Shown here: positions 42,262 through 59,003 of the stretch, piece by piece
Position numbering within the stretch: position 1 is the first letter of the stretch
Layout: each line of letters begins with the position of its first letter
DNA from: Clavibacter sp. A6099
GTDB taxonomy: Bacteria; Actinomycetota; Actinomycetes; Actinomycetales; Microbacteriaceae
Length of the DNA stretch: 64,000 bases
Direction: 5' to 3'
NCBI RefSeq assembly: GCF_021919125.1
Contig: NZ_CP083439.1
Location: 248,001-312,000 of the forward strand
Made by a program: the position numbers and the translations under genes
Notes under the pieces: generated by a model
Seen by the model: only the letters and a program-made list of their open reading frames with translations
Told to the model about the DNA's origin: nothing
Databases searched by the model: none

Positions 42262-42276
42262 TGAGAACCATGTGCA
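42262..42276. promoter_or_regulatory. Zur-like box between thioesterase operon and P450 gene
   Basis: TGAGAACCATGTGCA; the opposite strand reads TGCACATGGTTCTCA, matching the actinobacterial Zur consensus TGAAAATGATTTTCA at 11 of 15 positions. It lies in the 139-bp divergent promoter region, 72 bp from the thioesterase start and 54 bp from the P450 start. It resembles the box at 58989. By-eye match; binding not shown. Confidence 0.5.
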
Positions 42277-42329
42277 ATAGTGGCCGCTGCCGTGCGACCG
42301 AGCCGGCCCGATCCCCGCAAGGAGAAGCC

Positions 42330-43526
42330 GTGTCCGCCGTCACTCCCCCCGCATTCCCGTTCCGCCGCGCGTGCCCGTACCACCCGCCGACCGAGTACGA
42401 CGCGATCCGGGAGCACGGCCCCCTCACCCGCGTGAGCCTGCCCACGGGCGGCGACGCGTGGATCGTCACGCGCTACGACGACGTGCGGCGCCTCCTCGCC
42501 TCGCCCGACCTCAGCTCCGACGCGCGCGACGAGCGCTTCCCCGCGATGGGCGTGGGCGAGCGCGAGGCGGCGGCGAAGGCACGGCCGTTCATCCGGATGG
42601 ACGCCCCCGACCACACGAGGTACCGCACCGCGTTCCTCTCCGAGTTCAGCGCCCGCCGCGTGCGCGAGCTGGAGCCCGCGGTCACCCGCGTCATCGACGA
42701 CGCGCTCGACCGGCTGCCGGCCGTCGGACCGCCCGTGGACTTCGTGCGCCACGTGGCGAACGCCGTCTCGACGGGCGTGATCTGCGAGCTCGTCGGCGTC
42801 GAGGACGCCGACACCGAGTTCTTCCGCGACGTCGTCCGGGTCTCCGGATCCCGGCACAGCACCGCCGAGGAGGTGGGGCGTGCCATCGGATCGCTCTTCC
42901 AGCTGCTCGACGCGCTCGTCGAGCGCCGTCTCGCCGAGCCGAGCACCGACCTCCTCGGCCGCTTCGTGCAGAAGCACCTCGTCGGCGGCGGGTTCGCGCG
43001 GCAAGAGGTGCTCTCCGCCATCGCGATGGTGGTCATCGCGGCGCGCGAGACAACCACGGCGAGCATCGCGCTCGCGACGCTGCAGCTGCTGGAGCGGCCG
43101 GAGCTCGTGGCGGCGGCCCTGGTCGACCCGGAGACTCTGCCCGGGCTGGTCGACGAGCTCCTGCGCCGCACCGCGGTGAGCGACGCGCTGCCGCTGCGGG
43201 TCGCGACGGCCGACATCGCGGTCGGCGAGGCGCTCATCCGCGCGGGCGACGGCGTCATCCTCCTGCTCGGCGCGGCGAACCACGATCCGGAGCGGTTCCC
43301 CGACCCCTACGCCATCGACCCGTCGCGCCCACCGCGTCACCTCACCTTCGGGCACGGCGCGCACGCGTGCTTCGGGGCGAGCCTCGCGCGGATGGAGATC
43401 CGCCTGCTGCTCCAGGCCCTCTTCACGCGCTACCCGGACCTGCGCCTCGCCACCCCGCTCGACCAGGTCGAGCTGAAGCACGAGTCGGCGTCCTTCGGCG
43501 TGGAGGAGATGCTCGTCACGTGGTGA
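42330..43526 (+). CDS. Cytochrome P450
   Basis: A 398-residue soluble bacterial P450. The heme ligand Cys is in LTFGHGAHACFGASLAR. The K-helix ExxR is in LVDELLRRT, and the I-helix oxygen-activation stretch is VIAARETTTASIAL. AGGAGA sits just before GTG 42330, which I take as start; an ATG at 42273 and other starts upstream lie inside the regulatory box. It would hydroxylate or otherwise oxidise the NRPS product or a precursor. A P450 is also present in the coelibactin cluster. It converges with the reductase-methyltransferase gene, overlapping it by 11 bp. Confidence 0.9.
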   Translation: MSAVTPPAFPFRRACPYHPPTEYDAIREHGPLTRVSLPTGGDAWIVTRYDDVRRLLASPDLSSDARDERFPAMGVGEREAAAKARPFIRMDAPDHTRYRTAFLSEFSARRVRELEPAVTRVIDDALDRLPAVGPPVDFVRHVANAVSTGVICELVGVEDADTEFFRDVVRVSGSRHSTAEEVGRAIGSLFQLLDALVERRLAEPSTDLLGRFVQKHLVGGGFARQEVLSAIAMVVIAARETTTASIALATLQLLERPELVAAALVDPETLPGLVDELLRRTAVSDALPLRVATADIAVGEALIRAGDGVILLLGAANHDPERFPDPYAIDPSRPPRHLTFGHGAHACFGASLARMEIRLLLQALFTRYPDLRLATPLDQVELKHESASFGVEEMLVTW

Positions 43527-58100: not shown

Positions 58101-58962
58101 CGGCGCGGGCGGCCCGGGCGGCCAGCTCCGCGCGCACGTCGCGGTGGATCGCGGGCAGCGGTCGCCCGGGCCCAGCCACGAGGTCGCGGAGGTCGGCGAG
58201 GATCACGCGGAGGCTGATGGCGTCGCCCGCGAGCATGTCGAGGTCGACGTGCAGGCGGCTGCGGCCGAACGGCAGGAGCGTGAGGTCGACGCGGAGCACC
58301 TCGCCGCGCTCGACGGCCATGCGGCGGTGCGTGCCCTCGTCGCGCATCTCCGCCAGCCGCTCGTCCACGGCGTCGGCGGGCAGCGCGCGGAGGTCGTGGA
58401 CGCGCAGCCGGGCGGCGGGCGGCTCCTCGCCGGCGGGCAGCGGCTGCTGCGTGCCGTCGTCCCGGAAGCGGGTCCGCAGGGAGGCGTGCCGGGCGACCAG
58501 GGCGGCGAGGGCCGCGCGCAGCCGCTCGGGATCCGGATCCGCCCCGTCGAGCTCGACGTAGAAGTGCGCGGCGACCGACCCGGACGGCTGGCCGGGCTGC
58601 CGGCCCAGCCAGTACGCGTGCTGCAGCGGGGTGAGGGGCGAGGGCGACGCGGGGTCGAGGGTGGGAGCGGCGGGGCGCGTGGCGGGATCCGCGGCGTCGC
58701 CCGCGCCGTCGCCGTCCGCGGCGGCCTCGCCCAGCATGCGCGCCCACGCCCGGATCGTCGGGTCGGCCGCGAGCCGCGAGAAGTCGGCGGCGAGGCCGTC
58801 GCGCCGCCAGCTTCCCGCGAGGCGGATCAGCGCGGTGGACTCGAGGCCGAGGTCCACCAGGTCGTCGTCGAGCCCCACGTCGGCGGGGTCGAGGCGCAGG
58901 GCGCGCGCGACCTGCTCGCGGAGCAGCGCGGGGGCGGGGACGGAGGGGATCCGCTCGGTCAT
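52147..58962 (-). CDS. NRPS 1: ArCP-Cy-A-PCP-Cy-A-PCP
   Basis: A 2,271-residue synthetase that starts the chain. An aryl carrier protein comes first (Ser42 in LGLESTAL). Cy1 begins near residue 110 (SPLTPLQHAYWLGR) with DMLAGDAIS. A1 spans about 565-1065 (LFTSGSTGRPKGV; FDLSVYD; VWNTVP), then PCP1 (GGDSLQATRS, about 1116). Cy2 begins near 1180 (DPFPLTDVQRAYAVGR) with DYAVVDALS. A2 has IHTSGSTGEPKGV, FDLSVFD and LWDTVP; PCP2 is GGDSLAMLRL, about 2196. Both A domains look cysteine-specific, so salicyl-bis-thiazoline is the expected intermediate. GAGGAG lies 7 nt before ATG 58962. The promoter holds a Zur-like box. Modular order equals HMWP2/PchE extended by one module. Confidence 0.9.
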   Translation of the reverse strand: MTERIPSVPAPALLREQVARALRLDPADVGLDDDLVDLGLESTALIRLAGSWRRDGLAADFSRLAADPTIRAWARMLGEAAADGDGAGDAADPATRPAAPTLDPASPSPLTPLQHAYWLGRQPGQPSGSVAAHFYVELDGADPDPERLRAALAALVARHASLRTRFRDDGTQQPLPAGEEPPAARLRVHDLRALPADAVDERLAEMRDEGTHRRMAVERGEVLRVDLTLLPFGRSRLHVDLDMLAGDAISLRVILADLRDLVAGPGRPLPAIHRDVRAELAARAARADASRASEDARWWRERVPDLPAGPALPVRDDAERADAEPRSRRLHHRIGQDGLRMLEAAARARGLTVAAVLATAFAEVVAAWSADARFLLNLPVLDRGDEEGLELLVGEFSTSILLDVDLREERSFRDDAARIQQGVREAVAHAGYGGVDVLRDLARRDGGSPVLAPVVYTSAIGLGELYDASIRRALGEPVWIISQGPQVWLDAQVTELEGGLLLNWDVRVDILEERAMEDAFAAYRTLVDDLVHERAGAWDLQALAVPAPDDARARHELERPAPGTAASGAGDGLLHSAFLARAAADPDRPAVIGSDGHVVAYGELAEHARRVAGLLRARGVGPGATVAITAPAGPDRVAAVLGVLLAGACYAPVGPDQPPARRAMVLARGIDCVLADDGLVDGIAAGLGPGGPPVVALGTVRDAAPLADPVAVAPGDPAYLLFTSGSTGRPKGVEVAHRAAVATIRSLASVAPVGADDRAIALSALDFDLSVYDLFAVLSVGGAVVVPAEHERRDADRWRDLVRAHGVTVWNTVPALLDMLLAATGDGSLPLRLVLLGGDVVGPDLSARLAACAPAARLLALGGMTEAAIHSTVHEAGAGAPADPASPARGLPWGAPLPGVRLRVVDERGRDRPDGVPGELLVGGHALARGYRGEPELTAQRFPVVDGERWYRSGDRARYRRDDAGRPVLEFLGRADHQLKIRGHRVEPGEVEAALASFPGVQRAVVVAVAGALAAMVVPQAGRIVAPDDVAAHARALLPPSMHCARVVVRAGLPLTANGKVDRARIRAELAEPPAPALRPDDDAPRTPAERLVERVWSELLGTPCGRGRSFFAAGGDSLQATRSVAALRAAGAADASVAALFRHPVLADFAATLRLTAPEPADARPRIVPDPAHAHDPFPLTDVQRAYAVGRDPRIPLGGVGTYHHTEFDGRDQDLDRLAAAFDELVRRHPTLRTVIDPDGTQRVLADVPPVRVDVREVPADADPDAVARELAAFRERTSHRRHDLAVWPLFDVDALRYPDGRGGIRTRIAIGIDYAVVDALSIMILYTELDLLVRGLPLPPAPAELTFRDCVLQTRPDPGRQRADEEHWRARLADMPDAPRLPLATADPAPRFTRRAHRFDAAWWTAFRDRCRAAGLTPTSMLATAYGHVLSRWTGQRDVTMTLTLFDRRDVHPDMPRLVGDFTGLTLLDHRAADSAVEAARGLQERLAGDLDHREAPASWILRERARLQGTAVAPVPVVFTSAIGVGDGGSDGHGVSADVSGSFGERIHGVSQSPQVLLDVQVLEDHGGLRVDADAREDAFPPGLVDALFAAYVATLEHLATAGWDAPLPVGPPADQASARAAEPAATATRRPGRLLHHAVHEAALRAPDAPALITGTGASTRVVTHGQLADRAMRIAGALRRRGIGPGDLVGITLPRGADQAAAVIGVLSAGAAYAPVGIGQPPVRRRAIHRAAGIRLVIADDPAAAGGDEPDAPALLRPADAAAEEPLAEPVRPPVEALAYVIHTSGSTGEPKGVEIAHDAAWSTVDAVGRMLEIGPGDRILALSALDFDLSVFDVLGVLGAGGALVIPEEGEERDAPRWLDLVHEHGVTLWDTVPMLLDMLLVATDDRPGRLGTLRAALVSGDRVGTDLHGRLIRAAEPGTRLVALGGATEAAIWSNAWEVDGPLDGWASAPYGRPLPDQAFRVLDASGRDCPDWVPGELVIGGRGLARGYRGDPARTSAAFVELDGGRWYRTGDTGRYRPGGILEFLGRTDRQVKLGGHRMELGEIEAAHAASPGVRRAIALVVDGTAGRKHLHVAIQPDDGHDGAAVLAAATATAADRLPAYAVPHRAHLVDAWPLTANGKVDVAALGRALVDAEPDAAATAADLASGSASGTATAPGTATEAALAELWAGILGTAPAPDAGFFAAGGDSLAMLRLVTAAQRRFGVDAGVRRFLEEPTVRAYAACIDRLLAAPATTTPAPASPADAPARPPATTGADLFESGDL

Positions 58963-58988
58963 GTGCACGCTCCTCGGACTCGCCTTGT

Positions 58989-59003
58989 TGAGAATGGTTA
59001 TCA
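58989..59003. promoter_or_regulatory. Zur-like box between NRPS 1 and the salicyl-AMP ligase gene
   Basis: TGAGAATGGTTATCA matches the actinobacterial Zur consensus TGAAAATGATTTTCA at 12 of 15 positions and is itself an imperfect palindrome. On the minus strand TATGAT (59000-59005), a good -10 for NRPS 1, overlaps it, so binding would block initiation. No IdeR/DtxR box (TTAGG-type) is visible in this 100-bp divergent region. Confidence 0.65.

What the first reader, a model, noticed from the sequence alone, without database searches (positions are those of the whole stretch)
42262..59003. Metallophore NRPS cluster with Zur-like boxes at both divergent promoters: candidate zincophore system
Seen: 15-bp Fur-family palindromes at 58989-59003 (TGAGAATGGTTATCA) and 42262-42276 (opposite strand TGCACATGGTTCTCA), each in a divergent promoter of the cluster. 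They resemble the box in front of the CobW-like gene (26786-26798). Known: actinobacterial iron siderophore genes are normally under DtxR/IdeR boxes (TTAGG...CCTAA type), while Zur uses a TGaaAatgatTttCA-type box; coelibactin of Streptomyces, with similar gene content, is under Zur control. Inference: this salicyl-thiazoline metallophore responds to zinc and may bind zinc, possibly to compete for the metal inside a plant host.
Basis: partly seen in the sequence, partly recalled or inferred. Interest (0 to 1): 0.8.

Follow-up and report, generated by a model that had tools for sequence, protein, structure and literature searches.

The report
Zinc-controlled metallophore cluster in Clavibacter
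A plant-associated bacterium carries genes for a small metal-grabbing molecule whose two switches resemble the cell's zinc-starvation switch, and some sister species carry an unrelated peptide pathway behind the same kind of switch instead.

Summary
The boxes are real and lie where stated. The cluster is of the coelibactin type: it shares its gene order with 17 Streptomyces-type loci, except that the P450 is turned round. The genome (genus Clavibacter) has a znuACB-zur operon whose box matches box 1 in 14 of 15 letters. Box 1 is conserved in 8 of 8 readable promoters. A Zur-like site stands at the same place in 15 of 15 readable Streptomyces-type clusters; Zur control of the S. coelicolor genes is published. 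No IdeR-like site was found. Box 2 is weak by sequence but position-conserved in 9 of 9. Zur repression is well supported; zinc binding and a role in plants are untested. It is a new member of a known kind.

The surprise lies outside the window. Nine of 18 Clavibacter genomes have this cluster and seven others a streptamidine-related RiPP locus behind a similar box; none has both. Among 34 related YcaO loci of the class, 29 show a family-like precursor, and 24 of these 29 have a Zur-like site (<=2 mismatches) within 400 nt upstream, against 8 of 580 shuffles. That predicts a zinc role for a RiPP family of unknown function, although published assays found no metal binding by streptamidine.

The parts
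58989..59003 (+). Zur-like box 1 in the divergent NRPS1 / salicyl-AMP ligase promoter
   Evidence: site at the equivalent place in 15 of 15 readable Streptomyces-type clusters
42262..42276 (-). Zur-like box 2 in the divergent thioesterase / P450 spacer; weak by sequence, conserved in position
   Evidence: no site within 2 mismatches between NRPS1 and ABC2 in 20 Streptomyces-type and Rothia loci
26785..26799 (+). Zur-like box before a CobW_C-domain gene
26814..27887 (+). CobW_C-domain protein
   Evidence: Pfam PF07683
37043..38785 (-). ABC half-transporter 2, IrtB/YbtQ-like
38785..40590 (-). ABC half-transporter 1, IrtA/YbtP-like
40587..41375 (-). SAM methyltransferase
41372..42190 (-). stand-alone thioesterase
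42330..43526 (+). cytochrome P450; best PDB match 3tyw, recalled as CYP105N1 of the coelibactin cluster
43516..45435 (-). thiazolinyl imide reductase fused to a methyltransferase
   Evidence: TIGR01761 above cut-off; Irp3/YbtU in PDB
45432..46577 (-). saccharopine-dehydrogenase-like NADP enzyme
46574..52150 (-). NRPS2: TubC_N, cyclising condensation domain, A with methyltransferase, carrier, thioesterase (start from gene calling)
52147..58962 (-). NRPS1: three carrier domains, two condensation domains with cyclising motif, two A domains
59063..60763 (+). aryl-AMP ligase of the 2,3-DHB-AMP ligase family, presumed salicyl-AMP ligase (best NCBIfam hit below its cut-off)
60756..61490 (+). 4'-phosphopantetheinyl transferase
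61501..62988 (+). salicylate synthase (MbtI/Irp9-like)
   Evidence: TIGR03494 above cut-off

Best explanation
A coelibactin-type NRPS makes a salicyl-capped molecule with three cyclising (Cy) modules. When zinc is ample, zinc-loaded Zur sits on box 1 and box 2 and blocks transcription: box 1 shuts the NRPS side and the ligase-PPTase-salicylate synthase genes, and box 2 shuts the thioesterase-methyltransferase-ABC genes and the P450. When zinc falls, Zur lets go of these along with znuACB-zur-ribosomal protein and CobW genes, the metallophore is made and secreted, and the IrtAB/YbtPQ-like ABC pair brings the loaded form back. Shown here: genes, boxes, conservation, regulator identity, parallel with Streptomyces-type clusters. 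Inferred: binding by Zur, derepression by zinc starvation, operon limits, secretion and import direction, zinc as the physiological cargo.
For: Internal reference: znuA-znuC-znuB-zur-rpmB-rpmG-rpsN operon with TGAGACTGGTTATCA 19 nt before znuA, 14 of 15 letters as box 1; a site at that place in 18 of 18 Clavibacter genomes (17 within 2 mismatches, one with 3). Zur's best PDB match is 3mwm (recalled as S. coelicolor Zur), then M. tuberculosis-type FurB 2o03. Box 1 invariant in 13 of 15 columns over 8 promoters; box 2 present in 9 of 9. Cluster collinear with 17 Streptomyces-type loci at about 45-56% identity. Site before the AMP ligase in 15 of 15 with readable promoter. Published motif tGaNNatSatNNtCa and Zur regulation of SCO7681 and SCO7682 (PMC5472717, PMC6103462, passages). 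No IdeR-like site in the window or in nine loci of cluster-bearing relatives; an exact IdeR-type match exists elsewhere in the genome.
Against: No binding or expression data. Box 2 alone scores no better than chance. Seven of 9 clusters lack the P450 at that place, so box 2 there faces only the thioesterase side. The S. coelicolor cluster has extra metal-transport genes SCO7677-80 (PMC3430247, legend) and none was found beside this one. Multidrug exporters match the ABC pair as well as importers do. Phenolate-thiazoline ligands also bind iron and copper (general knowledge), and coelibactin had not been isolated (PMC3430247, passages).
Confidence: 0.82

Rival explanations
1. It is an iron siderophore cluster under IdeR/DtxR; the boxes are incidental.
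For: Salicyl-thiazoline chemistry is typical of iron siderophores (general knowledge); genes resemble yersiniabactin and mycobactin genes.
Against: No IdeR-like site (<=3 mismatches) in the window or in nine loci of relatives, while an exact match occurs elsewhere in the genome (at <=3 mismatches that pattern is not in excess over its reversed control, 9 against 17). Box 1 is conserved and has a counterpart in Streptomyces-type clusters.
Confidence: 0.07
2. The boxes belong to the second Fur-family protein (next to a catalase) and the cluster is a peroxide or iron response.
For: That protein is in the Fur family and Fur-family boxes look alike (general knowledge).
Against: It lies directly before an ORF read by eye as a catalase and the stretch before it shows no such box, whereas znuA-zur and two CobW genes have it.
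Confidence: 0.04
3. Zur control is real, but the product mainly carries another metal or acts as signal or inhibitor.
For: Zur-controlled genes need not bind zinc themselves; no coelibactin product was known (PMC3430247, passages).
Against: IrtAB/YbtPQ-like ABC pair and salicylate chemistry argue for a metallophore; seven genomes without it have another Zur-boxed biosynthetic locus, in L204 with a FecCD importer.
Confidence: 0.25
4. Box 1 is a Zur site but box 2 is a chance resemblance.
For: Matrix score expected 0.75 times per 64 kb; second half-site degenerate.
Against: TGAGAA invariant in 9 of 9 in an otherwise variable spacer (15-mer 0.84 against 0.52 identity to the window for the leader); two relatives score 19.4.
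Confidence: 0.2

Closest known systems
Coelibactin cluster of Streptomyces (SCO7676-92)
   Same: In 17 Streptomyces, Actinoallomurus and Microbispora loci the same genes stand in the same order from NRPS1 to the ABC pair, with a Zur-like site before the AMP ligase. S. coelicolor itself was not compared.
   Different: P450 turned round in the window and G009 and missing there in 7 of 9; a second Zur-like box; no adjacent metal-import genes found; salicylate synthase sits behind the AMP ligase instead of behind the ABC pair.
Yersiniabactin
   Same: Salicylate synthase, aryl-AMP ligase, cyclising domains, Irp3-like reductase, YbtPQ-like ABC pair.
   Different: No PKS domain in the Pfam result; regulator type differs (recalled); P450 present.
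Streptamidine-family RiPP loci (ami)
   Same: In Clavibacter they stand behind the same kind of box and occur only where the NRPS cluster is absent; L204 has a FecCD importer.
   Different: Ribosomal precursor and YcaO enzymes; unrelated chemistry.

Membership tests
Coelibactin-type cluster | Two Cy-containing NRPS genes followed by reductase, P450, TE, MT and ABC pair | tested here: met
   Collinear with 17 loci (L123-L129, L131-L140; P450 match only partial in L137); Cy motifs; the P450 is inverted in the window. In Rothia L142 the P450 lies after the ABC pair. SCO genes themselves were not compared.
Coelibactin-type cluster | CYP105N1-type P450 | tested here: met
   Best PDB match 3tyw, 435 bits against 289 for the next (that 3tyw is CYP105N1 is recalled); absent at that place in 7 of 9 Clavibacter clusters, not sought elsewhere in those genomes
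Coelibactin-type cluster | AMP ligase gene with a Zur site before it, beside NRPS1 | tested here: met
Coelibactin-type cluster | Adjacent metal-transport genes like SCO7677-80 | tested here: not met
   Accessory in my view. No FecCD or binding-protein hit among genes called at 35-64 kb or in ten proteins of the next 13 kb. A Zur-boxed FecCD operon lies elsewhere in the genome.
Coelibactin-type cluster | Product structure | not testable with these tools
   Product not isolated in S. coelicolor at that time (PMC3430247, passages)
Zur regulon | Genome encodes an actinobacterial Zur | tested here: met
Zur regulon | Box matches the motif before znuA of the same genome | tested here: met
   Box 1: 14 of 15 letters
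Zur regulon (box 2) | Sequence score above chance | tested here: not met
   12.7, expected 0.75 per 64 kb; conserved in position all the same
Zur regulon | Zinc-dependent binding and derepression | not testable with these tools
   needs experiment
IdeR regulon | TTAGG-type box at the promoters | tested here: not met
   0 matches at <=3 mismatches in the window
Streptamidine family (alternative Clavibacter locus) | Precursor matches NF040714 or NF040715 | tested here: met
   L200 precursor 121.5 bits against cut-off 45; 7 of 18 genomes over cut-off

The most novel reading that the evidence does not exclude
Streptamidine-family RiPPs, a widespread family of unknown role, are a Zur-controlled zinc-acquisition system, and in Clavibacter they are functionally interchangeable with the coelibactin-type NRPS cluster: most species keep one of the two zincophore pathways behind the same switch.
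Probability: 0.55. Interest if true: 0.85.

Novelty: new member of a known kind. Interest (0 to 1): 0.6.

Why it matters
It extends the zinc-controlled coelibactin type to a genus of plant bacteria and gives a second set of clusters in which to look for the missing product. More widely, comparing these genomes yields a direct and cheap test of what the streptamidine family is for: look for zinc control. Its role was left unknown after metal-binding assays failed (PMC8442711, passages).

Tried and rejected
Considered and rejected: control by IdeR and by the second Fur protein. The Zur-boxed FecCD operon L032 as the dedicated uptake system: close relatives (88-100%) of its binding protein occur in 3 of 18 genomes, plus an 87% end piece of 32 residues at a contig end in G004; G002 and G004 lack the NRPS cluster. 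Sigma-70 consensus scans at both spacers gave nothing. A search of 396 phylum genomes with the streptamidine profile found only 2 genomes, so the wider RiPP test rests on YcaO hits. A PDB search with the single Zur-boxed secreted protein P0001 gave nothing useful; a profile gave a weak beta-propeller match. A-domain specificity codes were not derived. Most other 2-mismatch places were not assessed.
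Full report
WHAT WAS CLAIMED AND WHAT IS THERE. The finding names two 15-bp palindromes in two divergent promoters of an NRPS cluster and compares them with a box before a CobW-like gene. All three are present at the stated places. With TGANAATNNTTNTCA and up to 2 mismatches the 64-kb window gives matches at these three places and no other: 5 matches against a mean of 0.28 in shuffles. 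The window lies in a 3.33-Mb genome of two contigs.

THE CLUSTER. From 37.0 to 63.0 kb: two ABC half-transporters, a methyltransferase, a thioesterase, a P450, a thiazolinyl imide reductase fused to a methyltransferase, a saccharopine-dehydrogenase-like enzyme, two NRPSs, and on the other side of box 1 an aryl-AMP ligase, a phosphopantetheinyl transferase and a salicylate synthase. The NRPSs contain three DxxxxD motifs of cyclising condensation domains (the meaning of the motif is recalled). The P450's best PDB match is 3tyw, 435 bits against 289 for the next; that 3tyw is CYP105N1 of the coelibactin cluster is recalled. The ABC proteins match IrtA/IrtB of mycobactin import and YbtP/YbtQ along their full length, but multidrug exporters score as high or higher in these lists, so import is likely, not shown. 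In 17 Streptomyces, Actinoallomurus and Microbispora loci (L123-L129, L131-L140) the order NRPS1-NRPS2-SDH-reductase/MT-P450-TE-MT-ABC-ABC holds at about 45-53% identity, with only a partial P450 match in L137. L130 and L141 are cut by contig ends, and in Rothia L142 the P450 lies after the ABC pair.

THE GENOME'S OWN ZUR REFERENCE. One ZnuA and two Fur-family proteins are encoded. One Fur protein lies in an operon znuA-znuC-znuB-zur-rpmB-rpmG-rpsN (znuC, znuB, rpmG and rpsN are named from sequence by eye). It is closest in the PDB to 3mwm, recalled as S. coelicolor Zur, and to FurB 2o03, labelled a probable zinc uptake regulator. A box TGAGACTGGTTATCA lies 19 nt before znuA, 14 of 15 letters as box 1. 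In 18 of 18 Clavibacter genomes a site stands at this place, 17 within 2 mismatches and one with 3. The other Fur protein precedes an ORF read as a catalase and has no such box before it. At up to 1 mismatch the window's genome has five places: box 1, the window CobW gene, znuA, a FecCD importer operon, and a secreted protein of no known family. A second CobW gene has a 2-mismatch box.

CONSERVATION. In the 8 genomes whose NRPS1/AMP-ligase spacer could be read, including this one, box 1 is invariant in 13 of 15 columns; the two others swap T/C and G/C. The whole spacer is well conserved in these close relatives, so this is supporting, not decisive. In the ninth genome the fetched contig ends inside NRPS1. 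Box 2 is found in 9 of 9; TGAGAA is invariant and the 15-mer is 84% identical to the window against 52% for the thioesterase leader. By sequence alone box 2 is not significant. In 7 of 9 genomes the P450 is absent from this place. Scanned at the same 2 mismatches, 0 of 20 loci L123-L142 have a site between NRPS1 and ABC2; three (L133, L135, L139) have one beyond that stretch. Box 2 thus looks like a Clavibacter addition.

EXTERNAL CONTROL. In S. coelicolor SCO7681 and SCO7682 are listed as Zur-regulated and the ChIP motif is tGaNNatSatNNtCa (PMC6103462 and PMC5472717, passages; the primary 2010 paper was not held). Of 16 genomes with coelibactin-type clusters searched, 15 have a Zur-like site (<=2 mismatches) about 80-120 nt before the matched part of the AMP ligase; the 16th (Rothia) is cut by a contig end and shows none. 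None of the 16 loci has an IdeR-like site. No IdeR-like site occurs in the window or in nine loci of Clavibacter relatives. In the genome such sites occur elsewhere, one exact, though at 3 mismatches no more often than the reversed pattern (9 against 17 forward).

WHERE THE EVIDENCE LED. The cluster is in 9 of 18 Clavibacter genomes (reductase at 90% or more). Seven others (G002, G006, G007, G011, G014, G015, G017) carry a streptamidine-related precursor (NF040715 over cut-off). In six of them the gene map shows a similar operon, and Pfam on L204 gives an S15 peptidase, two YcaO proteins, a FecCD-type importer with ATPase and binding protein, and an MFS protein; the 313-aa protein resembles TOMM leader-binding proteins below the cut-off. 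A Zur-like box stands just before the precursor in all seven, with <=1 mismatch in six and 2 in G007. No genome has both loci; two have neither, one of them (G004) in 620 contigs. The chance of no overlap is 0.0011 if genomes were independent, which they are not. On a znuA-region tree the two types are mixed: G016 (NRPS) is sister to G015 (RiPP), support 1.00, and G011 (RiPP) to G008 (NRPS), 0.98. That suggests repeated replacement, on a single-locus tree.

STREPTAMIDINE-LIKE LOCI ELSEWHERE. Of 394 genomes of the class, 34 encode a YcaO relative at E<=1e-20. One locus of each of the 34 was fetched. Twenty-nine show a precursor-like peptide by motif (24 of the ALV kind, 5 of an HSSNHAT kind); five show none. 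NCBIfam was run on three of these loci: L286 and L294 match the streptamidine family, L276 (HSSNHAT kind) matches nothing. So not every locus is proven to belong to the family. In 5 kb upstream of YcaO, sites with <=1 mismatch lie in 19 of 34 loci against 1 of 34 downstream; with <=2 in 30 against 3; reversed pattern with <=2 in 2 and 1; IdeR-like in 0 and 0. Within 400 nt upstream of the peptide motif, 24 of 29 have a site with <=2 mismatches and 16 of 29 with <=1; of 580 shuffled stretches 8 and 1 do. L270, L271, L283 and L303 have no site at all in 5 kb. L286 has the exact streptamidine core with a box 70 nt before its start, and a nearby ORF read by eye as ribosomal protein L36 has its own box. 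Relatives (27-31%) of the Zur-boxed secreted protein of Clavibacter occur in four of these loci. Russell and colleagues described the family, noted FecBCDE-like genes and Clavibacter members, proposed metal import, and found no metal binding, zinc included, and no phenotype of the deletion under metal starvation (PMC8442711, passages and section 7). That speaks against a simple zincophore role, though not against zinc control.

WHAT IS IN PRINT. Held papers with Clavibacter and coelibactin, or with Clavibacter and zincophore: none. Held papers with YcaO and 'Zur regulon': none. Two held papers contain both streptamidine and zinc; the passages I saw in each make no link to Zur. Wider searches gave capped lists in which I saw no such link in titles and abstracts. 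Closed journals were not searchable.

VERDICT. Zinc binding is not shown. The stronger novelty is the predicted zinc control of streptamidine-family loci, found by asking what cluster-less relatives use instead.

Noticed in passing
L200, L201, L202, L203, L204, L209, L304 (Clavibacter genomes without the NRPS cluster): Streptamidine-related RiPP locus with a Zur-like box just before the repeat-bearing precursor; mutually exclusive with the NRPS cluster in 18 genomes. Two YcaO genes and a FecCD importer confirmed by Pfam in L204.
   Followed up: yes
L270-L303: Zur-like sites (<=2 mismatches) within 400 nt upstream of the precursor motif in 24 of 29 loci with a recognisable precursor (8 of 580 shuffles); no IdeR-like sites in 34 loci.
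   Followed up: yes
L031 6177-7487: Secreted 436-aa protein of no known family with a Zur-like box 13 nt upstream; distant relatives in four streptamidine-like loci; weak beta-propeller profile match.
   Followed up: partly
L032 6221-10073: FecCD importer, binding protein, ATPase and methyltransferase behind a Zur-like box; close binding protein in 3 of 18 Clavibacter genomes plus an end piece in G004.
   Followed up: partly
window 42330-43526 and L071: P450 is inverted between reductase and thioesterase in the window and G009 and missing there in seven other clusters.
   Followed up: partly
L034 5854-6927: Second CobW_C-domain gene with a 2-mismatch Zur-like box, followed by a RecQ-type helicase.
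   Followed up: no
L144 and L145: A Streptomyces alkaliphilus and a Nocardia carnea relative show both Zur-like and IdeR-like sites, possibly dual metal control.
   Followed up: no
L273 (reverse strand) 2083-2693: Histidine-rich ORF and ArsR/SmtB-looking ORF (read by eye) beside a streptamidine-like locus that has only a 2-mismatch Zur-like site.
   Followed up: no
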